Shown one piece after another: positions 27,337 through 44,877 of a DNA stretch of 64,000 nt. Under the pieces are notes generated by a model. The model saw only the letters and a list, made by a program, of their open reading frames with translations. It had not been told where the DNA came from and did not search any database. This stretch comes from Solirubrobacter phytolaccae (GTDB lineage: Bacteria > Actinomycetota > Thermoleophilia > Solirubrobacterales > Solirubrobacteraceae). The position numbers and the translations under genes are program-made. Positions within the stretch are counted from its first letter, which is position 1; the number at the start of each line of letters is the position of its first letter. The DNA lies in the NCBI RefSeq assembly GCF_027587195.1, contig NZ_JAPDDP010000010.1, forward strand, positions 1 to 64,000, in the 5' to 3' direction.

Positions 27337-27337
27337 C

Positions 27338-29281: not shown

Positions 29282-29316
29282 GGGTGCGACTTTCTCATTG
29301 TTCTCGGTCCGAACAC

Positions 29317-29340
29317 AAACCTAAACTAAAATTTAGGTTT
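29317..29340. promoter_or_regulatory. AT-rich inverted repeat upstream of DUF1800, candidate ROK operator
   Basis: AAACCTAAA (29317-29325) and TTTAGGTTT (29332-29340) form a perfect 9-bp inverted repeat with a 6-base spacer, between the ROK stop (29350) and the DUF1800 ATG. It is strikingly AT-rich for this genome. The minus strand reads TTTAGTTTAGG, similar to the TTAGTT half-sites of ROK/XylR operators and to the site at 34218. It is too AT-rich to be a good terminator. Confidence 0.55.
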
Positions 29341-29349
29341 GAACTCCGA

Positions 29350-30591
29350 CTAAGCGGGGAGTTCGGCAGCCACCAGCGTGGGGTCGGCGAGCAGCCGACG
29401 GAGCTGCGTCGCCGCTGCGCCGCGCATCGCGGCCTCCGCCCCCAGATTCGACGACAGCACGGGCGGGACCGCGCCGTTCCCGCCCAGTACACGCGTCGAG
29501 AGCTCGGAAGCGATCACGGGTGCGAGCCATTTCGTCATCGGCGCGAAGTGCCCACCGAGCACGACGGCCTGCGGTGACAGCAGGTTGACGACGGTGCCGA
29601 GCGCGATCCCGAGCCAGCGCCCGCAGTCCTCGAGCGCCGCCAGCGGTGCCGGCTCCCCCGCCTCGGCGCGCCGGACGAGCTCCCCGACCGGCCGCGCGAG
29701 CCCGCGCGCGCCGCCCTCGCCCTCACCGTCGATGCCCGCCGCGGCGAGCACCGGCTCCAGGCCCGCCCGGGTCTCCAGGCAGCCGCGCGAGCCGCACGCG
29801 CACTGCAACCCGTCGTGCTCGACCGTCGTGTGCCCGAACTCGCCGCCGAAGCCGCGGTAGCCACGGAACAGCTCGCCGCCGAGGATGAGCCCGCCGCCGA
29901 CGCCGATCTCGCCCGAGCAGTACATGAAGTCGCTGATGCCGGTGGCCGCGCCCTCCCACAGCTCGGCGAGCGCGGCGAGGTTGGCCTCGTTGTCGACGCC
30001 GACCTCGAGCCCGGGCGCGTCGATGCGCTCGCGCAGCAGGTCGCAGATCGGCACGTCCTTCCAGTGCAGGTTGGGCGCGATCAGCACGGCGCCGTGCTCG
30101 ATGTCGACGAGCCCGGGCACGGCCACGGTCGCGCCGATCGGCCGCAGCCCCTGCGCCTGGACCTCCTGCAGCGCGCCGCGCGCCAGCTCGCCCAGCCGGT
30201 CGAGCACTTCCTCGACATCGCGGCCGCGGTTGTCGACGGCCTCCATGCCCTTGTAGCGCGAGCCGCCGGCCAGGTCGGTGGCCTGCACGCCGACGTAGTC
30301 GACGTTGACCTCCAGGCCGAGCGCGACCACGCCGTCGCGGGCGACGTCGACCACCAGGCCGGGCCGGCCGGCCGTGCCGCGATGCTCGGCGCCGCGCTCG
30401 ACGAGCAGGCCGAAGTCCATCAGCTCGCTCACGAGGCTGGAGACCGTGCTCTTGTTCAGGCCGGTGTCCGAGGCGATCGTCGCGCGCGACCGGGGGCCGC
30501 GTTCGACCACCTGGCGCAGCACGACACTCAGGTTGTGGCGGCGCACGGCGCGTTGGCTCGACAGCTCGATCGCCGGCTTCGGGGTCCACAT
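29350..30591 (-). CDS. ROK-family transcriptional regulator (NagC/XylR type)
   Basis: From the ATG at 30591 the product is 413 residues. A winged helix at the N-terminus (ATIASDTGLNKSTVSSLVSEL) is followed by a ROK sugar-kinase-like domain with the zinc motif C-A-C-G-S-R-G-C-L-E and the preceding EFGHTTVEHDG. ROK regulators typically bind a sugar or sugar phosphate and repress neighbouring catabolic genes. The gene lies between DUF1800 and the ThuA-domain gene, and both have AT-rich candidate operators. A TTG at 30645 would extend the frame but overlaps nothing useful. Confidence 0.92.
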   Translation of the reverse strand: MWTPKPAIELSSQRAVRRHNLSVVLRQVVERGPRSRATIASDTGLNKSTVSSLVSELMDFGLLVERGAEHRGTAGRPGLVVDVARDGVVALGLEVNVDYVGVQATDLAGGSRYKGMEAVDNRGRDVEEVLDRLGELARGALQEVQAQGLRPIGATVAVPGLVDIEHGAVLIAPNLHWKDVPICDLLRERIDAPGLEVGVDNEANLAALAELWEGAATGISDFMYCSGEIGVGGGLILGGELFRGYRGFGGEFGHTTVEHDGLQCACGSRGCLETRAGLEPVLAAAGIDGEGEGGARGLARPVGELVRRAEAGEPAPLAALEDCGRWLGIALGTVVNLLSPQAVVLGGHFAPMTKWLAPVIASELSTRVLGGNGAVPPVLSSNLGAEAAMRGAAATQLRRLLADPTLVAAELPA

Positions 30592-30648
30592 GAGGTCAGG
30601 GAATGTACCGACGGACACGTCAGTCGGCCCGCCTAGGGCCGGCAAGGG

Positions 30649-30686
30649 GTCCGCCGCGGCGACACGGAGCAGTCGCCGCGGCGGAC
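30649..30686 (-). terminator. Strong hairpin terminator behind the ThuA-domain gene
   Basis: GTCCGCCGCGGCGAC (30649-30663) and GTCGCCGCGGCGGAC (30672-30686) form a perfect 15-bp stem with an 8-base loop. It begins 5 bases after the ThuA-domain gene stop. It separates that gene from the downstream ROK gene. Confidence 0.85.
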
Positions 30687-30691
30687 ATCGG

Positions 30692-33600
30692 TCACGGAGT
30701 CGTGGTCGACAGCGTGAACGTCAGCGCCTTGCTGTAGGCGCCGGTGCGGAGCGCCTCATTTTGCCCGATCGCCTGCTCGAAGCTCAGCGTGACGGTGTCG
30801 TTGGACACCGGCCCGCCGTAGGTGAGCAACGAGGTCGGCGCACCCGAGCCGCCGACCGGGGCGAACGCCCCGCCCGTCCCGGCCGCGCTCGTGGCCTTCG
30901 CCTGGAGCGGAGCCGCGAGGGAGAAGGCGCCGTTGACCAGACGGCCCGTCGCGGTGGCGGAGGCATCGGAGACGCTCAGGCGGGCGTCACCGGCGGTGGA
31001 GATCACGTCGGCCTTGGAGGTCGCCGTGTACGTCTTGGCCAGGCCCGGCGTGAACGCGCCGAACGTGGCCGGCGTGCCGAGCGAGAGCCCGAGCGTCGCC
31101 GGCACGCTGCCGCCGACCGTGCCCTGGGCCGGCTCGCCCTGGAGCGTCGGCGTCGGCGGCGCCGCCTCGTTGCCGCTCATCCAGCCGACGAGCTCGGCGC
31201 CCTTGGACTGGAGCTCGAGCAGCGCGGTGCCGCTGTCGGCACCGGCGTTGGCGAGGCGCTTGGCCTGCGCGACGAACGTGCGGGCGAACCCGGCGGCGGC
31301 CGCGAAGTCGTCGGCGCGGTAGGCCGCGTCGGCGCTCGCCAGCGCGGAGCTGAGCGCGGTCTTGCCGGCCGCGGTCACGTTGCCATCGGCGGCGGCCTCG
31401 TCCAGCAGGTCCTTGACCTCGTTGAACGTGACGCAGTTGCTGTACTCCTGCCCGGCGGTCCACTGGACCGCGTTGAGCATCATGTCGCGCCACCACTTCT
31501 CGGTCGTGAACTGCCAGTTGTGGCCGAGGGTCGTGGTGAACGAGCGCCCGCCGTCGAAGTTCCGGCACCAGGTCATCGAGTGCCGGTCGCTGTTGTGCAG
31601 CGCGCCCGCGCCGTAGCCGAGCTGGCCGACGAGCGAGTCCTCGTTCTCGTACATCAGCGGGTGCACGATGCCGAGCTCGGCCGGGTTGCGGTTGGTGTTG
31701 TAGAGCTCCTCGACGGTGAAGAAGCGCGGCGGCACGGACTGCATCGTCGAGTGGGCCGGATCGGCGTTGAGGAGCTCGACGTGACCGCCGGACTCCGTCT
31801 CGACCAGGATGCCGCCCTGGTTGGAGCCGTGGTTGGTGAAGCCCGCGCCGACGAGGTCCATGAACCACGGCACGTTCTGCATCGAGTCGATGCCGCCGTG
31901 GATGGCGATCACGCCGCCGCCCGCCCGGACGAACCGCTGCAGGTTGGCGAACTCGACCGCGTTCATGGTCGCCGTGCCGTTGATGCCGACCGTCGAGTTC
32001 AGGACGACCGTCTTGTACTGCTTGAGCTGCTCCCAATCCAGGAACGGGCTCGTGGGCAGCGAGACGCCCGCGGGGGCCTGGCGGCCAGGGCTGGCGCCGA
32101 TGTTCGGGTCCCAGATCTCGACGTCGAAGCCGTTGGTGGTACCGAGCTCCTGGAACATCGTCTCGAAGTCGACGATCGACTGGTGGCGGAAGCCACCGGC
32201 CCGGCCGCTGACGAGGATCTTGTAGGTGGCGAACGGGTTCGCCTTGAACGGGCTCGGGTTGTAGTACTGGCGGATCGCCTGCACGCCCTCCTCGGCCCCT
32301 TCGACCGTGATGCCGGTGCCGGACGTGTCGACCGGCGTGCCGTTGAGCTGCGCGATCAGCGCCTCACCGGCGCTCTGCAGCGGACGTGAGCTCGCGGCAG
32401 CGGCGTTGAACGCCTGCAGGGCCGTGACCGCCGCGGCGGTCTGGCCCGCGTCGGCCTTGGTCTTGGCGTCGGCGAGCAGCGCACGCAGCTCCGTGGCCTT
32501 CGCGGCGCTGATCAGCGGCTGCGGGTCGGCGACCGCCGCACCCGTCGCCTGCGCCTTCGTCAGCGGGCTGGCGAGGATGACGTTGTTGAGGTTCGTCGCG
32601 GTGCCGGACGCGTGGTCCTTGGCCAGCGGCGCGGTCAGCTCGACGTTCGCCTCGGGCGCGGCCGGCAGCGGCGAGAGGTTGCGCTTGACGTACACGACCT
32701 CCTGGTTGGCGCCGGTGTCGAGCACGATCGGCTGCCCGGCGATCGGGCCGTTGTTGCTCGGCGGGTTGGGGCCGGCGAGCGCCTCGCTGTTGTAGCTGGC
32801 AAGGCGGATCTTGGTCGAGCCCGCGGTGGCGGCGGCGCCGAGCGTCGTGCTCAGCGTCGGCGCCGTGCTCAGCGCCTTGGCGACGGTCACCGTCTCGGCG
32901 GTGTCGCCCGAACCGACGACGATCTCCTGGCCGGCGCGGAACCCGACCGGGCTCGCGAGCCGCAGGCCGGTGGCGCCGACGGCCTGCGCGCCGTTGAGCG
33001 TGGTGCGCAGCGCGTTGTTGGCGTACTGGTCGATCACCGTCGCGAGGTCCGCGAACGAGGTCGTGACGACGAACGTGTTCACGTACTTGGACGTCTGGCC
33101 CGCCGTGTCCTGGAGCGAGACGGTCTGCACGTGCTTGCCGACCGTCAGCCGGTTCACGTCCAGCGTCTTGGGCACCATGAACGTGCCGTCGACGGTCATC
33201 CGCCGCGGGGCGGCGCCGCCCGCGCCGGTGGCCACGGTGTCGCCGGCGTCGCGCAGGCGCGGGTCGGCCCGCAGCGGGGTGAGCGTCTGCGACTGCAGGA
33301 TCTTGCCGTCGACGACCTGCGGCACGTAGACCGCGGAGCCCGACAGGTGCGCGCGCTGGAGCGCGGTGGTGAAGGTGATGTTCGGCGCCGGGGCGACCGC
33401 GGCCGCGTCGACGGCGGCGACCTTGACGGTCTCCGCGCCCGAGCCGGTGTCGACCTGCAGGGTCTCACCGGCGGTGCGGCCGGCGACGCTCGCGAGGCGC
33501 AGGCCGGTGGCGCCCGCCGTGGAGGCGGCGCTCAGCGTCGAGGCCTGGGTGCCCCAGGTCGCGACCGGGCCCTTCGTGTCGATCTGCAGCGTGATCGTGT

Positions 33601-34195
33601 GGGCGTACGCGGTCGCGGCGACCGCGGTGTTCGCGGTGTGCGCCTTCGTCAGCGGCGCCGTGAGGGTGACGTTGGGCGTGGTGCCGCCCGGGTTGGGCAG
33701 GACGACCGTCGCGATCGTCGCCGTCTCCTGGCCCGCGCCCGTGTTGAGCACCAGCTGGTCGCCTGGGCCGAGCCCGTTGGTGCTGTTCAGGCGGACCGCG
33801 GTCGCCCCGACCGCCGCCGCCTGGTTGAGGGTCGTGTTGACGGCTACGCGGGAGAGGTTCCCGGAGCTGTCCACCGCGCGGTAGCGCAGCGGTGTGTTGC
33901 CCTCCTGCGACAGCGCGACGGGCGCCGTCGCCGACGGACCGGCCGTGACCGGCACGTCGACGTACGTCGCCCCGCCGTCCAGCGAGTACTGGAACTTGCT
34001 GACGGCGACGTCGTCGGTCGCCGACAGGTTCAGCGTCTGCGGCGCCGTCAGGCGCCAGCTGTTGTTGCCCGTCGGCGACGACGCGAACGTGGCCGGCGAA
34101 ACGACTGGTGCAGCGGTGTCCTGCGCCTGCGCTGTGGACGGCAGCGCGGACAGCGCAGCGGCGACCGCAGCCGCGGTGGCGACTCTCCTTGACAC
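30692..34195 (-). CDS. Giant secreted ThuA-domain protein with four beta-repeats and shared C-terminal domain
   Basis: This 1167-residue protein has a signal peptide (1-24, cut after AQA). An Ig-like region (about 30-120) is followed by four copies of a module (about 124-192, 221-290, 401-445, 452-533) with the pattern VGATxLRLxS, Gxxxx, VDTGSGAETVxV, TAPLxKxH. A ThuA (trehalose-utilization-type) domain lies at about 656-916, between two helical spacers, with GGVIAIHGGID and SDRHSMTWCRN. The tail (1025-1167) matches the end of the M28 peptidase. ThuA domains act on or bind sugars and keto-sugars, so an extracellular carbohydrate role is inferred. The GTG start follows a GGGGAGAGG ribosome site. 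Confidence 0.88.
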   Translation of the reverse strand: MSRRVATAAAVAAALSALPSTAQAQDTAAPVVSPATFASSPTGNNSWRLTAPQTLNLSATDDVAVSKFQYSLDGGATYVDVPVTAGPSATAPVALSQEGNTPLRYRAVDSSGNLSRVAVNTTLNQAAAVGATAVRLNSTNGLGPGDQLVLNTGAGQETATIATVVLPNPGGTTPNVTLTAPLTKAHTANTAVAATAYAHTITLQIDTKGPVATWGTQASTLSAASTAGATGLRLASVAGRTAGETLQVDTGSGAETVKVAAVDAAAVAPAPNITFTTALQRAHLSGSAVYVPQVVDGKILQSQTLTPLRADPRLRDAGDTVATGAGGAAPRRMTVDGTFMVPKTLDVNRLTVGKHVQTVSLQDTAGQTSKYVNTFVVTTSFADLATVIDQYANNALRTTLNGAQAVGATGLRLASPVGFRAGQEIVVGSGDTAETVTVAKALSTAPTLSTTLGAAATAGSTKIRLASYNSEALAGPNPPSNNGPIAGQPIVLDTGANQEVVYVKRNLSPLPAAPEANVELTAPLAKDHASGTATNLNNVILASPLTKAQATGAAVADPQPLISAAKATELRALLADAKTKADAGQTAAAVTALQAFNAAAASSRPLQSAGEALIAQLNGTPVDTSGTGITVEGAEEGVQAIRQYYNPSPFKANPFATYKILVSGRAGGFRHQSIVDFETMFQELGTTNGFDVEIWDPNIGASPGRQAPAGVSLPTSPFLDWEQLKQYKTVVLNSTVGINGTATMNAVEFANLQRFVRAGGGVIAIHGGIDSMQNVPWFMDLVGAGFTNHGSNQGGILVETESGGHVELLNADPAHSTMQSVPPRFFTVEELYNTNRNPAELGIVHPLMYENEDSLVGQLGYGAGALHNSDRHSMTWCRNFDGGRSFTTTLGHNWQFTTEKWWRDMMLNAVQWTAGQEYSNCVTFNEVKDLLDEAAADGNVTAAGKTALSSALASADAAYRADDFAAAAGFARTFVAQAKRLANAGADSGTALLELQSKGAELVGWMSGNEAAPPTPTLQGEPAQGTVGGSVPATLGLSLGTPATFGAFTPGLAKTYTATSKADVISTAGDARLSVSDASATATGRLVNGAFSLAAPLQAKATSAAGTGGAFAPVGGSGAPTSLLTYGGPVSNDTVTLSFEQAIGQNEALRTGAYSKALTFTLSTTTP

Positions 34196-34217
34196 GACCC
34201 TCTCCCCTCGAAAACCC

Positions 34218-34266
34218 TATTTGGTCCGGCGTGCCAACTAAACACTGTCTGACAATCGCGTGTCAA
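34218..34266 (-). promoter_or_regulatory. Promoter of the ThuA-domain gene with overlapping candidate ROK operator
   Basis: On the minus strand, TTGACA (complement of 34261-34266) and TTTAGT (complement of 34237-34242) are 18 bases apart. An imperfect inverted repeat, TATTTGG (34218-34224) and CCAACTA (34234-34240), overlaps the -10 and reads TTAGTTGG...CCAAATA, close to known XylR/ROK operators. This would give repression by the neighbouring ROK protein. Confidence 0.6.
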
Positions 34267-35700
34267 CTACCTCTTTAGCTGGCTGAGGGCCGGGTACAGC
34301 GCGCGGTAGCGGGCGCGCAGCTCCCGGTAGGGCTCGATCCACTCCTGCACCGGCTCCACCTCCGAGTGCGTGTGGACGCAGGCGGCGACGGCTTCGTGCA
34401 CGTCATCCCACAAACCCCCGGCGACGCCGCCGAGCAGGGCCGCGCCGTACGCCGCGCCCTCCTCGACCGCCAGCCGTTCGAGCGGGATCTCCAACACCGA
34501 GGCGACGATCTGCAGCCACAGCTCGCTGCGCGCGCCGCCGCCGGAGACGCGGCCGCGCTCGCCGCCGCCCACGAGGTCGAACGAGTCACGCAGCCCGCAG
34601 GCCACGCCCTCGAGCACGGCCCGGGTGAGCGCGCCGCGGTTGTGGCGGATCTCCAGGCCGGTGAACGCGCCGCGGGCGTTCGGGTCGGCGTGCGGGGTGC
34701 GCTCGCCCGTCAGGTACGGGAGGAACGTCAGCCCGTCCGCCCCGGGGCCCCACGCCTTCGCCTCCTCGGTGAGCTCCGGGAACTCGCCGCCGACCACGCC
34801 GCGCAGCCACGCGAGCGAGCCGGCCGCGGAGAGCATCACGCCCATCTGGTGCCAGGCGCCGGGCACGGCGTGGCAGAAGGCGTGCACGCGGGCCTGGGGG
34901 TCGGCCCGGTACTCGGGCAGCGCGGCGAAGACGACCCCGCTCGTCCCCATCGCGACCGAGAGCGGGCCGGGCCGGTCGACGCCGACGCCGAGCCCGCCCG
35001 CCGCCTGGTCGCCGGCGCCCGCGGCGACCGCGATCCCCGCCGCCGTCCGGCCACTCACCTCAGGCGACTCGAGCACGGTCGGCAGCCACGCCTTGTCGAT
35101 CTCGAGGATGTCGAGCACCTCGTCGCTCCAGCGGCGCTTGGCCACGTCCAGCAGCAGCGTGCCGGAGGCATCGGCGACGTCGATCGCCCGCTCCCCCGTC
35201 AGCTTCAGGCGCACGTAGTCCTTCGGCAGCATGATGTGCGCGATCCGGGCGTAGTTGTCCGGCTCGTGCTTGCGCAGCCACAGCAGCTTGGGCGCGGTGA
35301 AGCCGGTCAGCGCGCGGTTGCCGGTCAGCTCGACGAGGCGGTCGAAGCCGACGCGCTCCTCGATCTCCGCGCACTCCGCCCCCGTGCGCTGGTCGTTCCA
35401 CAGGATCGCCGGGCGGATCGGGCGGTCCTGCGCGTCCAGCGTGACGAGGCCGTGCATCTGGCCGGAGAGCCCGATCCCGGCGACGCCGTCGGTCAGGCCC
35501 TCGAGGGCCTGCTGGGTGGCGGCCCACCAGTCGTCGGGGTTCTGCTCGGACCAGCCGGGCTTGGGTGTCGAGAGCGGGTACGGGACCTCGCGGCGCTCGA
35601 GCACCTCGCCGTCTTCAGCGACGGCGATGACTTTGACCGCGGACGTTCCGACATCGATGCCGATCGCGGTGCGTGACGGATTCTGAAGTGTTGATGACAT
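34267..35700 (-). CDS. xylB: Xylulokinase (FGGY family)
   Basis: This 477-residue kinase should phosphorylate D-xylulose, or a related ketose, with ATP to feed the pentose phosphate pathway. FGGY motifs are clear: GIDVGTSAVKVI at the N-terminus, GLSGQMHGLV, AILWNDQRT, and TGNRALTGFTAPKLLWL, with the last two blocks typical of xylulokinases. C-terminal motifs are TGLEIRHNRG and VSGGGARSELW. It is divergent from the FAD oxidase operon across 47 bases. The ATG is only about 8 bases from the predicted transcription start, so the mRNA is probably leaderless. Confidence 0.93.
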   Translation of the reverse strand: MSSTLQNPSRTAIGIDVGTSAVKVIAVAEDGEVLERREVPYPLSTPKPGWSEQNPDDWWAATQQALEGLTDGVAGIGLSGQMHGLVTLDAQDRPIRPAILWNDQRTGAECAEIEERVGFDRLVELTGNRALTGFTAPKLLWLRKHEPDNYARIAHIMLPKDYVRLKLTGERAIDVADASGTLLLDVAKRRWSDEVLDILEIDKAWLPTVLESPEVSGRTAAGIAVAAGAGDQAAGGLGVGVDRPGPLSVAMGTSGVVFAALPEYRADPQARVHAFCHAVPGAWHQMGVMLSAAGSLAWLRGVVGGEFPELTEEAKAWGPGADGLTFLPYLTGERTPHADPNARGAFTGLEIRHNRGALTRAVLEGVACGLRDSFDLVGGGERGRVSGGGARSELWLQIVASVLEIPLERLAVEEGAAYGAALLGGVAGGLWDDVHEAVAACVHTHSEVEPVQEWIEPYRELRARYRALYPALSQLKR

Positions 35701-35705
35701 TTGGC

Positions 35706-35744
35706 TTGACAGCGATTGAAGGGTAATGCAAGGTTCGCTGTCAA
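35706..35744. promoter_or_regulatory. Perfect 10-bp inverted repeat filling the divergent promoter
   Basis: TTGACAGCGA (35706-35715) and TCGCTGTCAA (35735-35744) are separated by 19 bases. Each arm begins with a consensus -35 hexamer, TTGACA, reading into the spacer. For xylB a TTCAAT -10 (complement of 35715-35720) fits at 18 bases. The plus-strand -10 (AAGGTT, 35730-35735) is weak. The DeoR-type regulator at 40194 is the obvious candidate binder. Confidence 0.7.
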
Positions 35745-35747
35745 TAG

Positions 35748-37172
35748 ATGAAGTCTTCTGTTACGCAGCTGGCCGAGCTCGCACCCGCCCTCGCGGCGCT
35801 CCTCGGGGAGGACGCGGTCCACACCGAGGACGCACAGCTTGACGCCTACACGGCCGACACGTACTGGCCCGCCATCCATGCCCGCGCGGCGGGGGTGCCG
35901 CTGGGCCGGCCGGACGTCGTGGCGGTGCCCCGGCGCGAGGAGGACGTGGCGGCGGTGCTGCGGCTCGCTTCCGAGCACGAGGTGCCGGTCGTCGCGTGGG
36001 GCGGCGGCTCGGGCACGCAGGGCGGCGCGGTGCCGACCGGCGGCGGGCTCGTCGTCGACCTGCGCGGGCTGGACACGATCATCGAGATCGACGACGTCTC
36101 GATGACGGTCACCGCGCAGGCCGGCGTGAACGGGGACATCCTGGAACGCGCGCTGAACGAGCGCGGCCTCATGCTCCCGCACTACCCGGCCAGCTCGCAG
36201 TGGGCGACGGTCGGCGGGTACGTGTCGGCGCGGGGCTCCGGCGTGCTCTCCACGCGCTACGGCAAGATCGAGGACCTCATCGTCGGCCTGCGGGTCGCGC
36301 TCCCGAACGGGCAGCTGATCGACAGCGTCGGCGTCCCGCGCCACGCCGTCGGCCCCGACTTCACGCAGCTGTTCGTCGGCGCGGAGGGCACGCTCGGGAT
36401 CGTCACCCGCGCGAAGCTCGAGGTCGTCCCGCTGCCCGAGCGCAGCTTCGCGGCGCTGCACTTCCCGTCGGTCGCGGCGGGCGTGGACGCCTTCCGCACC
36501 GCGCTCGCCCGTGGCAACCGCCCGTCCGTGATCCGGATGTACGACGAGGAGGCGACGGTGCGGACGCTCTCCCCCGTCGTCGGCGAGCCGCTCGACGGGG
36601 TGTGCGCGATCGTGGTCTTCGAGGGGGGAGAGCCGGCGGTGGTCGCCGCTGAGCGGACCGCCACGATCGAGCTCGCGCGCCTGGAGGGCGCGCGCGAGCT
36701 CGATCCCGCTCTGGCCGAGACCTGGTGGAACCGCCGCTACGACTTCTACAAGCCGCCCCACCACCCCGAGCTGCCCGCGATCTGGGGCACGATCGACGTC
36801 GTCGCCTCCTATCGCGACATCCACGCGGTCCACCAGGCGCTGAAGACGGCGGTCCGCGACCGCTACGCGCCCCAGGGCCTCCAGCTGCGGATGCACTTCT
36901 CGCACTGGTACCGCTGGGGCACGATGATCTACGCCCGCTTCCTGATCCCGGACGGCGGGCCCGACGCGCTCGCCCTCCACGACCGGATCTGGAACGACGG
37001 CGTGACGGCCGTCCTGGCCGCCGGCGGGGTCATGAACGACCACCACGGCGTCGGCCTCAAGCTCGCACCCTTCATGCACGCACAACACGGCGCGGGGCTG
37101 GAGGCCTTGCGCTCGATCAAGTCCGCGTTAGATCCTCTCGGCATCATGAATCCCGGCAAGCTCGGCCTCTGA
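35748..37172 (+). CDS. FAD-linked oxidase, alkyl-DHAP synthase/glycolate oxidase-like
   Basis: This 474-residue flavoprotein has a PCMH-type FAD domain in its first half (VVAWGGGSGTQGGAVPTGGG; PASSQWATVGGYVSARGSG; GAEGTLGIVT). The C-terminal half ends with the AGPS-like features HFSHWYRWGTMIY, NDHHGVG and DPLGIMNPGK. Family members oxidise 2-hydroxyacids or carry out alkyl-dihydroxyacetonephosphate synthesis. In this catabolic locus, oxidation of a sugar acid or polyol is more likely. The ATG at 35748 is 3 bases after the operator repeat, so the mRNA is nearly leaderless. Confidence 0.88.
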   Translation: MKSSVTQLAELAPALAALLGEDAVHTEDAQLDAYTADTYWPAIHARAAGVPLGRPDVVAVPRREEDVAAVLRLASEHEVPVVAWGGGSGTQGGAVPTGGGLVVDLRGLDTIIEIDDVSMTVTAQAGVNGDILERALNERGLMLPHYPASSQWATVGGYVSARGSGVLSTRYGKIEDLIVGLRVALPNGQLIDSVGVPRHAVGPDFTQLFVGAEGTLGIVTRAKLEVVPLPERSFAALHFPSVAAGVDAFRTALARGNRPSVIRMYDEEATVRTLSPVVGEPLDGVCAIVVFEGGEPAVVAAERTATIELARLEGARELDPALAETWWNRRYDFYKPPHHPELPAIWGTIDVVASYRDIHAVHQALKTAVRDRYAPQGLQLRMHFSHWYRWGTMIYARFLIPDGGPDALALHDRIWNDGVTAVLAAGGVMNDHHGVGLKLAPFMHAQHGAGLEALRSIKSALDPLGIMNPGKLGL

Positions 37173-37187
37173 GGAGTGGGCCGTGCC

Positions 37188-37200
37188 GGAGGAGGAGAGG
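37188..37200 (+). promoter_or_regulatory. Ribosome binding site deciding the TIM-barrel gene start
   Basis: GGAGGAGGAGAGG lies 6 bases before the ATG at 37207. This favours that ATG over the upstream in-frame GTG at 37183, whose coding would cover the ribosome site. Confidence 0.7.
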
Positions 37201-37206
37201 AAGACG

Positions 37207-38115
37207 ATGGCGATCAAGGTGTCGATGCACAACTGGATGCGTCCAGAGCCGATCGAGCGGACGATCGAGCGGCTCAGCCGGTTGGGGTACGACGGGATCG
37301 AGATCTCGGGTGAGCCGGGCCTGTACGACGTCGGTCACGTGCGCGGGCTGCTCGAGGAGCACAACCTCGAGTGCTGGGGCGCGGTGACGCTGATGATGGG
37401 CGCGCGCGACCTCTGCCACGAGGACCGCTACATGCGGCTCGGGTCGATCGAGTACGTCAAGGACTGCCTGACGTTCGTGTCCCAGCTCGGTGGCCAGATC
37501 GTCACGGTCGTGCCGTCGACGGTCGGCAAGATCACGCCGATGGGCTCGCCCGCGGACGAGTGGCGCTGGTGCGTGGAGGCGCTGCGCGAGTGCCAGGCGC
37601 ACGCGGAGACCGTCGGCGTGCGGATCGGCCTGGAGCCGCTCAACCGCTTCGAGACGTACTTCCTGAACCGTTGCGAGCAGGCGCTGGCGCTGTGCGACGC
37701 GGTCGGCGGGAACATCGGCGTGGCGCTGGACACGTTCCACATGAACATCGAGGAAGCCGACCTGATCGACGCGATCCACCAGGCCGGCGACCGGCTGGTG
37801 GACTTCCACGTCGCCGACAACAACCGGATGCCGCCCGGCCACGGCGCGCTCGACTGGACGGCGATCGTGCGCGCGCTGCAGACGATCGGCTACGAGGGCC
37901 ACATGACCGCGGAGTTCGTCGCGTCGCTGGACCGCAGCGTCATCTCCGACCGGGAGATCGGCGACGCGTCCGAGGCCGGCGGCAGCGCGGGCATGGAGAA
38001 GTTCCTGCGCGACCACTCGACCGGCGCCGTGCCCGAGGTCTATTACGACCGCTACGCGCTCGAGAGCGTCGACTACCTGCGCTCTGTCCTGGCCTCGACC
38101 GCAACCGCCGTATAG
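37207..38115 (+). CDS. Sugar phosphate isomerase/epimerase (xylose isomerase-like TIM barrel), first copy
   Basis: This 302-residue TIM-barrel protein resembles ketose 3-epimerases. The metal-binding quartet is visible: Glu in IGLEPLNRFE, Asp in VALDTFHMNIEE, His in VDFHVADNNR and Glu in MTAEFVAS. These match the Glu-Asp-His-Glu site of D-tagatose/D-psicose 3-epimerases, with ADNNRMPPGHGALDW typical of that group. It probably epimerises a free ketose or keto-acid sugar in the pathway feeding xylulokinase. It follows the FAD oxidase gene by 34 bases and precedes the Tm-1-like gene by 2. Confidence 0.9.
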   Translation: MAIKVSMHNWMRPEPIERTIERLSRLGYDGIEISGEPGLYDVGHVRGLLEEHNLECWGAVTLMMGARDLCHEDRYMRLGSIEYVKDCLTFVSQLGGQIVTVVPSTVGKITPMGSPADEWRWCVEALRECQAHAETVGVRIGLEPLNRFETYFLNRCEQALALCDAVGGNIGVALDTFHMNIEEADLIDAIHQAGDRLVDFHVADNNRMPPGHGALDWTAIVRALQTIGYEGHMTAEFVASLDRSVISDREIGDASEAGGSAGMEKFLRDHSTGAVPEVYYDRYALESVDYLRSVLASTATAV

Positions 38116-38117
38116 GC

Positions 38118-39341
38118 ATGCCCGCCGTCGCCCTGATCGGGACCCTCGATACCAAGGGCGACGAGATCGCGTACGTGCGCAAGCGCCTGGAGGCGCTGCG
38201 CGTGGACGCCGTCGTGATCGACAGCGGCATCCTCGGCGAGCCGGGCTGCGTGGCGGACATCGGCCGGGAGGAGGTGGCCGCGGCGGGCGGCCACGCGTTG
38301 GCCGACGTGCAGTCGGCGGGGTCGCGCGGAGCGGCCGTGTCGCTGATGGTGGACGGGGTCCGGGCGCTGGTCGTGCGCCTGTTCGCCGAGGGCCGGGTGC
38401 AGGGCGTGCTGTGCCTGGGCGGCGCCGAGGGCGCGCTGCTGGGAGCCGCGGCCATGCAGGCGTTGCCCGTGGGCGTGCCGAAGCTGCTCGTGTCGCCCAG
38501 CGCGAGTGGGCGCCGCACCTTCGCGGCCTTCGTCGGCGAGAGCGACGTCTGCGTCATGCACTCCGTCGTCGACATCCTGGGCCTGAACGGCATCTCGCGA
38601 CCGATCTTCGACAACGCCGCGGCCGCGATGGCCGGGATGGTGCGGGACGCGGGTGCGCCGCTGGGCGCGCTCGGCGAGCACTGCGTCGGCGTGACGATGC
38701 TCGGCCAGACCACGCCGGGCGTGATGCGCCTGCGCGATCAGCTCGTGCGCGCCGGCCACGAGCCCGTGATCTTCCACGCCAACGGCGTCGGCGGCCCCGC
38801 GATGGAGCACCTGTGCGAGGAGGGCGCGCTGCAGGGCGTCGTCGACTACACGCTGTCCGAAGTCGCCAACTCGCTCAAGGACGGCATGCACGCGACCGGC
38901 CCCGAGCGGCTGACGATCGCCGGCCGGCTCGGCCTCCCCCAGGTCGTCGTGCCCGGCTGCGTGGACTTCTTCAACCAGGGCCCGCGCGACTCGCTGCCGC
39001 TCGCCTACCGCTCCCGCAAGGCCTACTTCCACAACCCGGTGATGACGCTGGTGCGCCTCGACCGCGAAGAGTCCGCCGAGCTCGGCGGGATCGTGGCCGA
39101 GCGGCTGAACCGCGCCACCGGGCCCGTGCACGTCGTCGCGCCCACGCGCGGGTTCTCGCTGGCCGACGCCGAGGGCGGCGACCTGTGGGACCCCGAGGCC
39201 GACGCCGCCTTCTTGGACGCGCTGTCCAGTGCCTTGCGCCCCGAGATCCCGTACGAAGCCGTCGACGCCCACGTCGACGACCACGAGTTCGCCGACGTGG
39301 TCGCCTCCCGTTACCTCGCCCTTGTCGGAGCTTATGCCTGA
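38118..39341 (+). CDS. Tm-1-like ATP-binding (UPF0261) protein
   Basis: The product has 407 residues and spans the whole UPF0261/Tm-1-like family: VALIGTLDTKGDE at the N-terminus, LGGAEGALLGAAAMQALPVGVPK, GVTMLGQTTPGVMRLRD, FHANGVGGPAMEHL and VVPGCVDFFN. The plant Tm-1 homologue binds ATP and a viral protein. The bacterial reaction is unknown, though the family recurs in carbohydrate-type gene clusters. Here it sits tightly between a TIM-barrel epimerase and a creatininase-like gene, overlapping the latter by 8 bases, so a catabolic role is inferred. Confidence 0.9.
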   Translation: MPAVALIGTLDTKGDEIAYVRKRLEALRVDAVVIDSGILGEPGCVADIGREEVAAAGGHALADVQSAGSRGAAVSLMVDGVRALVVRLFAEGRVQGVLCLGGAEGALLGAAAMQALPVGVPKLLVSPSASGRRTFAAFVGESDVCVMHSVVDILGLNGISRPIFDNAAAAMAGMVRDAGAPLGALGEHCVGVTMLGQTTPGVMRLRDQLVRAGHEPVIFHANGVGGPAMEHLCEEGALQGVVDYTLSEVANSLKDGMHATGPERLTIAGRLGLPQVVVPGCVDFFNQGPRDSLPLAYRSRKAYFHNPVMTLVRLDREESAELGGIVAERLNRATGPVHVVAPTRGFSLADAEGGDLWDPEADAAFLDALSSALRPEIPYEAVDAHVDDHEFADVVASRYLALVGAYA

Positions 39342-40197
39342 TTCTCGCCCTGTTAGCCACTGCATCATGGACCTCGCGCCGCCGGACATCGCGTGGTTCC
39401 AGGAGAAGTCGGACATCATCCTCGTGCCGATCGGCTCCTGCGAGCAGCACGGCGCGCACCTGCCGCTGGGCACGGACACGATCACCGCCCTGGAGGTCGC
39501 GCGGCGCGCGGCCGAGCAGGCCGACGTGCCCTACACGGCGCCGTTCTGGGCCGGCTACTCGCCGCAGCACATGCGCGAGACCGAGTCGGCCGTGGGGACG
39601 ATCACGCTGCGCGCGGAGACGCTGAACGCGGTCCTCTACGACATCCTGCGCTCGCTCATCCACCACGGGTGGAACAAGCTCATCCTGGTCAACGGGCACG
39701 GCTCCAACGTCAAGGTGCTGGACCCGCTGCTGCGGCGGATCAAGTACGAGACCGGCGCGCTGGTCGCGCTCTACAAGCCGTACGCCGAGCGCTACATCGG
39801 GATCCTGGAAGGGCTGCTCGACAACCCGCCCGAGGAGACGCCGGGCTGGCACGCGAGCGAGCTGGAGACCTCGCAGGTGATGGCGCACAACGCGTCGCTG
39901 GTGCGGATGGACCGCGCCGCCGAGGACCGCGCGCAGGCGCCCGAGTGGCTGCCCGACTCGTTCCTGAAGTCCGACGGCGCGCCCGACGTGCAGTTCGAGG
40001 GCTACCAGTACTTCTCGTTCCCGATGGACCACGGCGAGTTCTCGCGCACGGGCGTGATCGGCAACCCGATGACGGCCACTCCGGAGAAGGGCGAGGAGGC
40101 CCTGACCCGCTTCTCCGGCCATCTCGTGCGGGCGATCGACGAGTTCCGCGGCCTGGACGTGCAGGTGCGCCGCCGCGCGTTCGAGGAGCGCGTGTGA
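39334..40197 (+). CDS. Creatininase-family amidohydrolase
   Basis: The product has 287 residues from the ATG at 39334, which overlaps the end of the preceding gene; ATG 39367 is an alternative. The creatininase signature is complete: DIILVPIGSCEQHGAHLPLGTD with metal ligands Glu and His (given as IGSCEQHG and HLPLGTD), LVNGHGSN, and an ETSQVMA helix. Family members open cyclic amides or lactam-like rings using two metals. In sugar clusters they may act on lactones or other ring compounds, but no substrate can be read here. There is no creatine pathway in the window. Confidence 0.9.
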   Translation: MPDSRPVSHCIMDLAPPDIAWFQEKSDIILVPIGSCEQHGAHLPLGTDTITALEVARRAAEQADVPYTAPFWAGYSPQHMRETESAVGTITLRAETLNAVLYDILRSLIHHGWNKLILVNGHGSNVKVLDPLLRRIKYETGALVALYKPYAERYIGILEGLLDNPPEETPGWHASELETSQVMAHNASLVRMDRAAEDRAQAPEWLPDSFLKSDGAPDVQFEGYQYFSFPMDHGEFSRTGVIGNPMTATPEKGEEALTRFSGHLVRAIDEFRGLDVQVRRRAFEERV

Positions 40198-40988
40198 GCA
40201 CCATCCCTCCCGCCTTACGGAGGGCCCAGATCCTCGAGCGCATCCAGCGTGACGGCGGCGTGTCCGTTGCCGATCTCGCGCGGGAGCTCACGGTGTCGTC
40301 GATCACCGTCCATCGCGACCTCGAGCAGCTCTCGCGCGACGGGCTCGTGGAGCGCGTGCACGGTGGTGCGCGGGCGTTGCCGGCCGCGGGGCCCGCAACC
40401 GCGATCCCGCCCACGGGCTGGGAGCAGCGCGCGGCGGTGGCCCGTGGCGCGAAGGCCGTGATCGCCGCGCACGCCGCGCGCGAGGTGCAGTCGGGCTCGA
40501 CGATCTTCCTGGACTCCTCGTCCTCGTGCCTGGCGCTCGCCCGCCAGCTCGTGGTGAGCGAGGCCGCGAGCAACCTGACGCTCGTCACCAACTCGCCGGC
40601 GATCGCCTACGAGCTCGCCGACGAGCGGATGCTGGTGATCGTCACGCCCGGCGAGCTGGATCAGCACATGCGGCTGCTCGCCGGCCGCTGGACGACCGAC
40701 TTCCTGGCCGGGCTCAACTTCGAGCTGGCGTTCGTGTCCTGCGCGGGCGTGACGCTGGACGCGGGGCTCACGACGTCGCGGCGGGCGCTGGCGGACGTGA
40801 TCAACGTCGCCAGCGCGAACGCCGCCCGGACGGTGGGGCTGATCGACTCGAACAAGTTCGGGCGCGCGTCGCTGCTGACGATCGCCCGTGCGGAAGACCT
40901 TGACGCCATCGTCACGGATGAGGGCCTTGACGAGGCGACCGAACACACGTACCGAGCGGCCGGTGTGGCGCTCGAAATCGCGAAATAG
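40194..40988 (+). CDS. DeoR-family transcriptional regulator
   Basis: This 264-residue regulator has a DeoR helix-turn-helix ([21 protein letters not shown], with [14 protein letters not shown] after it) and a DeoR sugar-phosphate sensor domain ([56 protein letters not shown]). Such proteins normally repress sugar catabolism until a sugar phosphate binds. The GTG start overlaps the creatininase stop (GTGA). The inverted repeat at 35706-35744 is its likely operator, which would co-regulate xylB and this operon. Confidence 0.92.
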
Positions 40989-41011
40989 CGCAACGAGGAG
41001 GAGAGATAGGG

Positions 41012-42013
41012 ATGGCACGACCCGTAACGCTGTTCACCGGCCAATGGGCCGACCTCAGCTTCGAGGACCTGGCCGCGAAGGTCGGGGAGTGGGAGTTCGA
41101 CGGCCTCGAGCTGGCGACCTGGGGTGACCACTTCGAGGTGCCCAAGGCGCTGGCGGACCCGTCGTACATCAAGGGGCGGCGCGAGGTGCTCGAACGCCAC
41201 GGGCTGAACATCTGGGCGATCGGCGCGCACCTGACGGGGCAGGCGGTGTGCGATGTGATCGATGGGCGCCATCAAGGCGTGCTGGACCCGGAGGTGTGGG
41301 GCGACGGGGACGCCGAGGGCGTGCGCCAGCGCGCGGCGGAGCGGATGAAGGACACGGCGCGCGCCGCGGCGCAGCTGGGCGTCGAGGTCGTGACCGGGTT
41401 CTCCGGCTCGTCGATCTGGCACCTGTTGTACTCGTTCCCGCCCAACGACTGGGCGGACATCGAGCGCGGCTACGAGGACTTCGCGGAGCGCTGGTCGCCG
41501 ATCATCGACGTCTTCGACGCGGAGGGCGTCAAGTTCGCGCTCGAGGTCCACCCGACCGAGATCGCGTACGACTTCGTCACGACGCGGCTGGCGCTCGACG
41601 CGCTCGACAACCGCGAGGGCTTCGGGATCAACTTCGACCCGTCGCACTTCGCGCACCAGTTCCTGGACAGCGCGCAGTTCGTGGGCGAGTTCGCCGACCG
41701 CATCTACCACGTGCACGTCAAGGACTCGATCAAGCGGCTCAACGGCCGCCGGTCGATCCTCGGCTCGCACATCAACTTCGGCGAGGAGGCGCGCGGCTGG
41801 GACTTCGTCTCCCCCGGCCACGGCGACGTCGACTTCGAGGACCTGTTCCGGGCGCTGAACCGGATCGGCTACCAGGGTCCGCTGTCGATCGAGTGGGAGG
41901 ACTCCGGCATGGACCGCGACTGGGGGGCCCCGGACGCGCTCGCGTTCGTGCGCCGGACCGACTTCGCCCCGTCCACCGTCGCGTTCGACGCGGCGTTCGC
42001 GCGGGAGGGCTAG
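41012..42013 (+). CDS. Sugar phosphate isomerase/epimerase (TIM barrel), second copy
   Basis: This 333-residue TIM-barrel protein is of the same superfamily as the protein at 37207 but clearly different in sequence. Metal ligands are Glu in FALEVHPTE, Asp in INFDPSHF, His in HVHVKDS and Glu in [14 protein letters not shown] and SPGHGDVDF are common in IolE/YcjR-like isomerases that partner Gfo/Idh/MocA dehydrogenases. A strong ribosome site (GAGGAGGAGA, 40995-41004) precedes the ATG, and the dehydrogenase gene begins immediately at its stop codon. Action on a 3-keto sugar is inferred. Confidence 0.9.
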
Positions 42014-43195
42014 ATGAGCAAGGTCGGATTCGTCACGATGGGCGAGTCGGCGGGCGGGGACGACATCCCGACCGTCGGCGTGGGCATGCTCGGCTACGGG
42101 TTCATGGGCAAGGCCCACTCGAACGCGTACAAGACGCTCGCCTACATGACCTGGCCGCCGCCGCTGATGCCGCAGCTGGTGTCGATCGCGGGGCGCAACG
42201 AGGAGGCCGTCGCCGGCGCCGCGCGGCGCTACGGCTTCGACGGCTACGTGACCGACTGGAAGGCCCTGGTGGCCGACGAGCGGATCGGCGTGTTCGACAA
42301 CTCGGGGCCGAACAACTTCCATTCCGAGCCGACGATCGCTGCCGCCGAGGCGGGCAAGCACGTGATCTGCGAGAAGCCTTTGGGGCGGACCGCGGAGGAG
42401 TCCTACGAGACGTGGAAGCGCGTCGACGCGACCGGCGTGAAGGCGATGGTGGCCTTCAACTACCGGTTCGTGCCGGCGGTGCGTCTGGCGCGGATGATCA
42501 TCGAGTCGGGCGAGCTCGGCGAGATCTTCCACTTCCGCGGGCGCTACCTGCAGGAGTGGATCATCGACGCGGACTTCCCGATGGTCTGGCGGCTCGACAA
42601 GGACGTGGCCGGCTCGGGTGCGCTGGGTGACCTCGGCGCGCACGTGATCGACCTCGCCCGGTATCTGGTCGGCGAGATCGCGGCGGTGAGCGCTTCCACC
42701 CGGACGTTCGTGAAGGACCGCGAGGGCCAGGCCGTGACCGTCGACGACGCGGTCGAGTCGGTCGTGGACTTCGAGAACGGCGCGGTCGGGACGATCGAGG
42801 CGACGCGCTTCGCGTCCGGTCGCAAGAACGCGCTCCAGTTCGAGATCAACGGCTCCAAGGGCTCGCTCTCGTTCGACATCGAGCGGCTGAACGAGCTCGA
42901 GGTCCACTACCGCGACTCCGCCCCCGGCAACCTGTCGCAGGGCTTCCGGCGCGTGCTCGTCTCCGAGGCCGACCATCCCTTCTGGGAGCACTGGTGGCCG
43001 CAGGGGCACATGATCGGCTGGGAGCACACCTTCGTCCACGAGATCCACCACTTCTTCACGGCGATCCGCGAGGACACGGAGATCGGGCCGCACGGCGCGA
43101 CCTTCGAGGACGGCTACCGCGCGGCGGAGATCTGCGACGCGATGCTGCGCTCCGCGGAGAACGGCGCGCGCGAGTCGCTCAGCTACCGGTCCTAG
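42014..43195 (+). CDS. Gfo/Idh/MocA-family oxidoreductase
   Basis: This 393-residue NAD(P)-dependent sugar dehydrogenase has a Rossmann motif displaced by a short N-terminal extension (GVGMLGYGFMGKAHS), the EKPLG motif, VAFNYRFVPAVRLA, and the catalytic region GSGALGDLGAHVIDLARYLVG (aspartate and histidine in DLGAHVID). The adjacent TIM-barrel gene ends at the base before its ATG, indicating tight coupling. Together they resemble dehydrogenase/isomerase pairs acting on inositols, 3-keto glycosides or rare sugars. The exact substrate is open. Confidence 0.92.
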   Translation: MSKVGFVTMGESAGGDDIPTVGVGMLGYGFMGKAHSNAYKTLAYMTWPPPLMPQLVSIAGRNEEAVAGAARRYGFDGYVTDWKALVADERIGVFDNSGPNNFHSEPTIAAAEAGKHVICEKPLGRTAEESYETWKRVDATGVKAMVAFNYRFVPAVRLARMIIESGELGEIFHFRGRYLQEWIIDADFPMVWRLDKDVAGSGALGDLGAHVIDLARYLVGEIAAVSASTRTFVKDREGQAVTVDDAVESVVDFENGAVGTIEATRFASGRKNALQFEINGSKGSLSFDIERLNELEVHYRDSAPGNLSQGFRRVLVSEADHPFWEHWWPQGHMIGWEHTFVHEIHHFFTAIREDTEIGPHGATFEDGYRAAEICDAMLRSAENGARESLSYRS

Positions 43196-43211
43196 GACCA
43201 AAGGCGTCTGG

Positions 43212-43246
43212 ATACCGGGCATCGTCGGCGCGACGATGCCCGGTAT
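43212..43246 (+). terminator. Perfect 15-bp hairpin between the sugar operon and DUF5519
   Basis: ATACCGGGCATCGTC (43212-43226) and GACGATGCCCGGTAT (43232-43246) pair perfectly around a 5-base loop. It starts 17 bases after the dehydrogenase stop. The right arm contains the in-frame ATG at 43236 and reaches the ATG at 43245, so besides terminating the operon it could hide the start of the next gene. Confidence 0.75.
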
Positions 43247-43568
43247 GTCCACCATCGCTGAAGAAGTCGAGGCCTGGCCGGGCGTGACCGCCGGCCACGG
43301 CGAGCGCGGCGAGTACGCGTTCAAGGTCGGCGCGCGCGAGATCGGCCACCTGCACGGCGAGCGCGTCCTGCACATCGGGCTCCCGAAGCCCGTCTGGCAC
43401 GAGCTCCACGACGCGGGCCGGATCGACTACCACCCGGTCTTCCCCGGCAAGCCGGGCTTCGGCGCCCGCGCGATCCGCAGCGAGGACGACAAGCGCGACG
43501 CGATCGCGATCCTGCGCCTGAACTACGACCGCGTGATCGAGCGCTACGGCCTTCCCGTCCCGACGTGA
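43245..43568 (+). CDS. DUF5519 (luciferase-like domain) small protein
   Basis: This 107-residue protein matches DUF5519: WPGVTAGHGERGEYAFKVG, REIGHLHGERVLHIGLPK, LHDAGRIDYHPVFPGKPG and a terminal helix ILRLNYDRVIERYG. The family is uncharacterised, despite a luciferase label in databases. The ATG at 43245 is preferred; ATG 43236 lies inside a hairpin arm. Its stop overlaps the next gene's GTG start (GTGA), so it is co-translated with the dehydrogenase-like gene that follows. Confidence 0.82.
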   Translation: MSTIAEEVEAWPGVTAGHGERGEYAFKVGAREIGHLHGERVLHIGLPKPVWHELHDAGRIDYHPVFPGKPGFGARAIRSEDDKRDAIAILRLNYDRVIERYGLPVPT

Positions 43569-44437: not shown

Positions 44438-44877
44438 TCGACCCGCTCGAACCGCCAGGTCTCGGCGAGCCAGCGCGGGACGAAGGCGTCCAGCGCGCGT
44501 TCCAGATCGCTCCCGACCTCGTTGTCCACGACCCACCAGGACGCGACCGCGTCGTGCGGCGCGTCGCCGGCGGCCGGGTCGATGTAGACGCAGCCGAGCA
44601 GCTCGGCCTCGTCGGCCGGGAGCACCGCGTAGTTGAAGGTGATGTGGGCCGCGATCTCGTCCTCGTGGTGCTGGAGGTCGTCGCGGTCCTGCTCGTGGGT
44701 CATCGTCGCCGGCGGCCAGCCCCACGCGTCGCCGTACTTCGCCAGCCGGTCGCGGGAGCCCATGACGGCGGGCAGGTCGATGTCGACGTCGTCGGCGCGG
44801 ATCGGGCGCAGGTGATGCCCGGTCGGCAGGTCCACACGCAGGGGGTGCTCGAAGCCCTCAGGCAGCCATGTATCCAT
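44425..44877 (-). CDS. GNAT-family N-acetyltransferase-like protein
   Basis: This 150-residue protein has a GNAT-like layout: an N-terminal strand (HHLRPIRADDVD), a central strand pair (AHITFNYAVLPADEAELLGCVYIDP) and a later segment (SWWVVDNEVGSDLERALDAFVPRWL) resembling the region around the acetyl-CoA loop. A classical Q/RxxGxG/A loop is not obvious, so it may be a divergent member. It is convergent with the MDR gene and overlaps it by 13 bases. Confidence 0.65.
   Translation of the reverse strand: MDTWLPEGFEHPLRVDLPTGHHLRPIRADDVDIDLPAVMGSRDRLAKYGDAWGWPPATMTHEQDRDDLQHHEDEIAAHITFNYAVLPADEAELLGCVYIDPAAGDAPHDAVASWWVVDNEVGSDLERALDAFVPRWLAETWRFERVDYSP

What the first reader, a model, noticed from the sequence alone, without database searches (positions are those of the whole stretch)
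35701..35747. Perfect 10-bp inverted repeat doubling as both -35 boxes in a 47-bp divergent promoter
TTGACAGCGA and its complement lie 19 bases apart, and each begins with consensus TTGACA reading inward. The gap leaves almost no leader on either side. One bound DeoR dimer could block both promoters at once, a very compact regulatory switch.
Basis: seen in the sequence. Interest (0 to 1): 0.5.

Follow-up and report, generated by a model that had tools for sequence, protein, structure and literature searches.

The report
Compact overlapping sugar-operon divergent promoter
A 47-base gap between two sugar-breakdown gene sets in a soil bacterium seems to pack two back-to-back promoters and a repressor site into the same letters; it is a tidy but fairly ordinary control switch, and the eye-catching mirror repeat is only partly what relatives conserve.

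Summary
The repeat is real: TTGACAGCGA (35706-35715) and its complement (35735-35744), 19 bases apart, lie in the 47-bp gap between a xylulokinase gene (-) and a FAD-oxidase/DeoR catabolic operon (+) of a Solirubrobacter-genus genome. Ten loci were compared (seven genomes of the genus, a Thermoleophilaceae MAG, two MAG loci labelled Dormibacteraeota and Chloroflexi). Conserved are TTGACAG and, 4 bases on, a TG(A/C)A(A/G)-type word; the GCGA extension that makes the repeat 10 bp long is found only here and in G002. The right arm TGTCAA occurs in the 7 genomes where a long divergent gene starts 3-5 bases from TTGACAG, and is missing in G003 and L050, which have no such gene, as expected of a -35 box; L051 also lacks it, but its divergent start codon is ambiguous. 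The left block has 10-bp direct-repeat spacing, the layout reported for DeoR-family RhaR operators. So "two -35 boxes plus DeoR control" is probably right; "the 10-bp palindrome is the site of one DeoR dimer" is not supported. The -10 boxes are weak (2/6 and 4/6), a strict promoter scan found nothing, and binding and start sites are untested. New member of a known kind; low interest.

The parts
34267..35700 (-). FGGY kinase (XylB-type xylulokinase), divergent gene; no Shine-Dalgarno motif
   Evidence: (TIGR01312 542.5 bits, cut-off 380.25)
35701..35747 (.). 47-bp divergent intergenic control region
   Evidence: conserved 47/47 (G002), 42/47 (G001, G004, G006), 39/47 (G005) against 54-73% identity at fourfold sites of the two flanking genes
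35706..35711 (+). TTGACA: proposed -35 of the FAD-oxidase operon; also part of the first 10-bp direct-repeat unit
   Evidence: present in all 10 loci compared; precedes TAGGCT/TAGTCT at spacer 17 in L050/L051
35739..35744 (-). TTGACA: proposed -35 of the kinase gene
   Evidence: present in 7 genomes with an abutting divergent gene; missing in G003 and L050 (no such gene) and in L051 (start codon ambiguous)
35705..35734 (+). Proposed DeoR operator: three imperfect 10-bp direct repeats CTTGACAGCG / ATTGAAGGGT / AATGCAAGGT
   Evidence: lag-10 self-match 0.60, 13 of 20,000 base shuffles as good; TTGACAGNNNNTGMARG found once in the genome
35715..35720 (-). TTCAAT, proposed -10 of the kinase promoter (spacer 18, 4/6)
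   Evidence: the same hexamer by reading in G001/G004/G006 and G005 (spacer 18) and G084 (spacer 17)
35729..35734 (+). CAAGGT, weak candidate -10 of the operon promoter (spacer 17, 2/6, A2 and T6 only)
35706..35715 (+). left arm of the perfect inverted repeat
35735..35744 (-). right arm of the perfect inverted repeat
35748..37172 (+). FAD-linked oxidase (GlcD-like), first gene of the operon; no Shine-Dalgarno motif
40194..40988 (+). DeoR-family regulator, fifth gene of the run; proposed repressor
   Evidence: DeoRC 131 bits, HTH_DeoR 51.9 bits, both above gathering score; orthologues

Best explanation
A compact divergent control region in which two sigma-70-type promoters overlap almost completely, each -35 box lying beside the other gene's start codon, with a local DeoR-family repressor site laid over them. 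The left arm TTGACAG is both the -35 of the FAD-oxidase operon and the first unit of a 10-bp-period direct-repeat operator (35705-35734); the right arm is the -35 of the xylulokinase gene. When the sugar or sugar-phosphate signal is absent, DeoR made from the operon sits on the repeats, covering the left -35, the spacer and both inferred -10s, so both genes are off; the inducer releases it. Transcripts would have leaders of about 5-9 nt and be translated without a Shine-Dalgarno sequence. Shown: the sequence, its conservation, the gene context, and that the right arm goes with an abutting divergent gene in 9 of 9 unambiguous loci. Inferred: start sites, DeoR binding, repression, inducer.
For: The gap is more conserved than flanking fourfold sites in 5 of 5 pairwise comparisons, e.g. 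G005 39/47 against 143/243 and 153/285. TTGACAGNNNNTGMARG is found once per genome, always here, in 6 of 8 genomes searched. TTGACA-17-TAGGCT and TTGACA-17-TAGTCT in L050/L051. Right arm in 7 genomes with a long divergent frame starting 3-5 bases from TTGACAG (kinase in six; ABC permease, Pfam BPD_transp_2, in G084), missing in G003 (abutting ATG opens only 27 codons) and L050 (abutting TTG, 38 codons) (the start distance was computed for own, G003, G084, L050 and L051 and read for the others). DeoR orthologue (51-93% identical) in the six other Solirubrobacter genomes, G084, L051 and G138. Lag 10 has the highest mean self-match of lags 4-15 across 7 loci (0.49; lag 11 next, 0.39), and DeoR-family RhaR sites are described as direct repeats of 10-11 bp period, with EMSA of a four-unit tandem site in Chloroflexus (PMC3870299: passages, section 14). 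In G138 the region in front of the ABC genes carries TTGAAAA and TTGAAGG 20 bp apart.
Against: A strict promoter scan found 0 promoters in 34201-44500 (shuffle mean 0.4); -10 candidates are 2/6 (+) and 4/6 (-). L051 has a divergent FAD-protein gene whose longest frame starts with a TTG 5 bases from TTGACAG yet has no right arm; if that TTG (not the GTG at 80 bases) is the true start, it is a counterexample. Lag-10 periodicity is not significant alone in G003 (1486 of 20,000 shuffles as good), L050 (1820) or L051 (3316); the motif words were chosen after seeing the data. G003 and G138 lack an exact 17-mer match. No second DeoR site was found in the genome, and none of the exact words tried lies in front of the own ABC-permease orthologue, so the motif rests on orthologues. 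These are related sequences: independent events are few.
Confidence: 0.55

Rival explanations
1. As first read: the 10-bp inverted repeat TTGACAGCGA is the operator, bound by one DeoR dimer (or a tetramer bridging both arms) that blocks both promoters.
For: Perfect symmetry in this genome and G002; only 3 of 20,000 shuffles of the gap do this; G001/G004/G006 keep 7 bp and G005/G084 6 bp of symmetry (reading). B. subtilis DeoR, a SorC-family protein, binds a 39-bp operator with separated half-operators as a tetramer (PMC11229326, passages).
Against: The GCGA extension is not conserved; symmetry limited to TTGACA(G) is accounted for by two -35 boxes; G003 and L051 lack the right arm although both keep a DeoR orthologue and the left block.
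Confidence: 0.16
2. Only overlapping promoters: both arms are plain -35 boxes and the conserved middle is -10/spacer sequence; control is by RNA polymerase competition or by another regulator (for example the ROK protein at 29350-30603), not DeoR.
For: TTGACA is the consensus -35; in E. [quoted passage not shown] A ROK gene lies nearby in 6 of 7 Solirubrobacter loci.
Against: The TG(A/C)A(A/G) word in the spacer, not needed for a promoter, is kept in G084, L050 and L051; ROK and kinase give no hit in the G003 and G084 loci of 20 kb while the block and DeoR are there. At E. coli bidirectional promoters starts are most often 18, 10 or 23 bp apart around a shared -10; here the inferred ones are about 32 bp apart.
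Confidence: 0.22
3. The repeat acts as an RNA or DNA hairpin.
For: The strand folds at -10.4 kcal/mol as DNA, z -4.8.
Against: The pairing beyond TTGACA(G) is not kept: both sides change without compensation in G001/G004/G006 and G005, and G003 lacks an arm; both inferred transcripts start inside the repeat.
Confidence: 0.03

Closest known systems
DeoR-family RhaR operators (rhamnose regulons, incl. Chloroflexus RhaR)
   Same: Local DeoR-family regulator of a sugar-catabolic cluster; direct/tandem repeats with 10-11 bp period (PMC3870299)
   Different: Other repeat sequence (TTGAMRG-like, not TCGAAA) and another pathway; here overlapping two -35 boxes in 47 bp; binding not shown
Bacterial bidirectional promoters with a shared -10 (PMC12825309)
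   Same: Two promoters on opposite strands so overlapped that RNA polymerase could bind only one way at a time
   Different: There a shared symmetric -10 with starts mostly 18, 10 or 23 bp apart; here symmetric -35 boxes, separate -10s and inferred starts about 32 bp apart
AxgR (DeoR family) site of Caldicellulosiruptor
   Different: There the site lies in the intergenic region beside the regulator gene; here the regulator is the fifth gene after the promoter

Membership tests
DeoR-family (HTH_DeoR + DeoRC) local sugar regulon | Regulator with HTH_DeoR and DeoRC domains in the operon | tested here: met
   protein 6: both above gathering scores
DeoR-family (HTH_DeoR + DeoRC) local sugar regulon | Direct-repeat operator of 10-11 bp period overlapping the promoter | tested here: inconclusive
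   lag 10 best overall; rare in shuffles for own (13/20,000), G001 (2), G005 (51), G084 (162), not for G003, L050, L051; words picked post hoc
DeoR-family (HTH_DeoR + DeoRC) local sugar regulon | Binding of the operator by the protein | not testable with these tools
   needs gel shift or footprint
Bidirectional promoter with a shared -10 | Divergent start sites mostly 18, 10 or 23 bp apart around a shared -10 | tested here: not met
   best -10 candidates at 35715-35720 and 35729-35734 do not overlap; starts about 32 bp apart if 7 bp after them (inference, no start-site data)
Sigma-70-type promoter | TTGACA with a TANNNT -10 at 16-18 bp | tested here: inconclusive
   -35 perfect on both sides; -10 2/6 and 4/6; 0 hits in the strict scan; TAGGCT/TAGTCT at 17 bp in L050/L051

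The most novel reading that the evidence does not exclude
One 39-bp sequence carries several readings at once: two -35 boxes, two start-site regions (each inside the other promoter's -35), and a DeoR direct-repeat operator whose first unit is one of the -35s, so that RNA polymerase on one strand excludes it on the other and a single repressor complex shuts both; the arms are gained and lost with the divergent gene, which makes the perfect palindrome a by-product of promoter placement and not a dimer site.
Probability: 0.3. Interest if true: 0.35.

Novelty: new member of a known kind. Interest (0 to 1): 0.22.

Why it matters
It warns that a perfect palindrome between divergent genes can arise from two facing -35 boxes and need not be the repressor's site. 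It also offers a short, testable operator for an uncharacterised DeoR-linked sugar-catabolic cluster shared by Solirubrobacter and some more distant genomes.

Tried and rejected
Hairpin reading: folds well but the pairs beyond TTGACA(G) are not conserved. Further operators in the same genome: TTGACAGNNNNTGMARG is found only here; with CTTGACAGCAATTGAAGG at 3 mismatches one more place (C93) was found, at which I only looked at the frames of the locus. Exact words (TTGAAGG, TTGAAAGG, TTGACAG, TGCAAGG, TTGACA, TGTGAAGG) in the 16-kb stretch with the own orthologue of the G084 ABC permease gave two hits, neither in front of that gene.

Distant homologues (40-48% identity; 22 of the 30 loci): the stretch before the match was printed for 12 of 22 and I saw no such block by eye; L061, L063, L064, L065, L068, L069 and L071-L074 were not looked at. 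Of those 12, gene hits were printed for 11, with no DeoR hit at 1e-15; several contigs are short. L083 (G035) was also printed, no block seen. G324 has a DeoR hit but a rearranged cluster; its promoter was not analysed. In G138 the oxidase is internal to the gene run, so its own upstream was dropped from the comparison, and the ABC promoter on another contig was used instead, a post hoc choice.

Literature: 8 searches were answered (lists of at most 15); no listed paper is about this region. I saw passages of PMC12825309, PMC11229326, PMC8579813 and PMC3870299, and section 14 of the last.

Full report
WHAT IS THERE. The window lies in a 7.74-Mb genome of 169 contigs. Its genus is Solirubrobacter: genomes marked 'same genus' have contigs whose lengths match named Solirubrobacter records. 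At 35706-35715 and 35735-35744 lie TTGACAGCGA and its exact complement, 19 bases apart, in the 47-bp gap between the ATG of a XylB-type xylulokinase on the minus strand and the ATG of a GlcD-like FAD oxidase on the plus strand. After the oxidase come a TIM-barrel epimerase-like gene, UPF0261, a creatininase-family gene, the DeoR-family regulator at 40194-40988, a second TIM-barrel gene and a Gfo/Idh/MocA dehydrogenase.

IS IT CHANCE. Inverted repeats of this size are ordinary for a 64-kb window of this composition (14 observed; 6-17 in 10 shuffles), but of 20,000 shuffles of the gap itself only 3 have one. The exact pair is unique in the genome.

WHAT IS CONSERVED. The oxidase search of 101 genomes gave close orthologues (75-100% identity) in 7 of 7 Solirubrobacter genomes, own included, and one at 68% in G084 of another family; the next best was 43%. 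A profile search of 399 genomes of the class gave 8 at E<=1e-90, own included. The named collection gave 30 loci, of which L050 and L051 (MAGs labelled Dormibacteraeota and Chloroflexi) have 63-64% identity. The gap is identical in G002 (47/47), 42/47 in G001, G004 and G006, and 39/47 in G005, while fourfold sites of the two flanking genes are 72-73%, 66-70% and 54-59% identical. The GCGA part of the left arm reads GCAA in G001, G004, G006 and G005; symmetry with the right arm shrinks to 7 bp in the first three and 6 bp in G005 (reading). G003 keeps CTTGACAGTAGTTGAAGAG but has no right arm; G084 has TTGACAGACATTGAAAGGG and TGTCAA. L050 and L051 have TTGACAG-N4-TGCAAGG and TTGACAG-N4-TGAAAG, then TAGGCT and TAGTCT 17 bases after TTGACA, and no right arm.

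WHY THE ARMS LOOK LIKE -35 BOXES. In L050/L051 the left arm sits at the ideal distance from a good -10. The right arm is present in the seven genomes where a long divergent frame starts 3-5 bases from TTGACAG: the kinase in six, a BPD_transp_2 permease in G084. It is missing in G003, where the abutting ATG opens only 27 codons, and in L050, where an abutting TTG opens 38. L051 also lacks it: its divergent FAD-protein frame can start at a TTG 5 bases away or at a GTG 80 bases away, so it is either neutral or a counterexample. G001 and G006 are apparently one strain; the seven with the arm amount to four sequence types. Both first genes lack a Shine-Dalgarno motif, while epi1, deoR, epi2 and gfo have one and UPF0261 does not (the creatininase start used there was set wrongly and is not counted). 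This fits transcription starting a few bases before the ATGs. Against: the strict scan found no promoter, and the -10 candidates here are CAAGGT (2/6) and TTCAAT (4/6).

WHY THE DeoR SITE IS PROBABLY A DIRECT REPEAT. Written in tens from 35705, the block reads CTTGACAGCG ATTGAAGGGT AATGCAAGGT. Lag 10 gives the highest mean self-match over seven loci; of 20,000 base shuffles, 13 do as well in the own sequence, 2 in G001, 51 in G005, 162 in G084, but 1486 in G003, 1820 in L050 and 3316 in L051, so the distant loci do not prove it alone. Words of the type TTGA(A/C)(A/G)G occur 15 times in seven promoter regions against a mean of 0.5 in 500 shuffles, a number inflated by relatedness and by choosing the word from the data. 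Predicted sites of DeoR-family RhaR proteins in four lineages are two imperfect direct repeats of 10-11 bp period, and a 38-bp DNA with four tandem sites (consensus TCGAAA) was tested by EMSA for Chloroflexus RhaR (PMC3870299; passages, section 14). A DeoR orthologue accompanies the cluster in the Solirubrobacter genomes, G084, L051 and G138; kinase and ROK give no hit in the 20-kb loci of G003 and G084. In G138 the region in front of the ABC genes, on another contig, carries TTGAAAA and TTGAAGG 20 bp apart. TTGACAGNNNNTGMARG is found once, here, in 6 of 8 genomes searched; G003 and G138 have none. The regulon would be local.

MECHANISM. Most likely DeoR on the direct repeats covers the left -35, the spacer and both inferred -10s and shuts both genes until a sugar signal arrives. 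The two promoters overlap so far that polymerase on one would exclude the other. This is inference; no binding or start-site data exist here.

COMPARISON. At bidirectional promoters of E. coli starts are most often 18, 10 or 23 bp apart around a shared -10 (PMC12825309, passages); here the -35s are the symmetric parts and the inferred starts are about 32 bp apart, so it is not that type. Two other TTGACA-N20-34-TGTCAA places in the genome lie at the 5' ends of a MarR/GNAT and a TetR-type gene, so symmetric TTGACA pairs also occur at other likely regulator sites.

VERDICT. Observation confirmed; interpretation partly supported; a compact but ordinary sugar-operon control region.

Noticed in passing
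window 35748-43195: Conserved uncharacterised catabolic cluster (FAD oxidase, IolO/psicose-epimerase-like, UPF0261, creatininase family with weak IolN similarity, DeoR, TIM-barrel, levoglucosan-dehydrogenase-like Gfo/Idh); of these seven proteins only UPF0261 passes an NCBIfam cut-off; substrate unknown; cluster also in L051 and G138.
   Followed up: partly
L113 (G000:C83:87879-87912), L114 (G000:C105:48276-48311): Other inverted TTGACA...TGTCAA pairs in the own genome, at the 5' end of a MarR/GNAT gene and of a TetR gene: possibly autoregulatory operators that include a -35.
   Followed up: partly
L116, L120, L122: TTGACAG-N3-CTGTCA type double palindromes in G001, G006 (apparently one strain) and G004; in L122 next to a DJ-1/PfpI gene with a MarR gene downstream.
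   Followed up: partly
L102 (G000:C169:44001-60000): A separate own-genome stretch with the ABC permease 80% identical to the one beside the DeoR operon in G084, and frames that look like a ROK regulator and a TIM-barrel protein (my reading): the transporter sits elsewhere in this genome.
   Followed up: partly
window 25750-34195: ThuA-domain protein, DUF1800 and DUF1501 genes and a ROK regulator on the minus strand after the kinase; hits to them in the same order in L038-L042, five of the six other Solirubrobacter loci, the ThuA protein partial in two and the DUF1501 gene not reached in L042.
   Followed up: no
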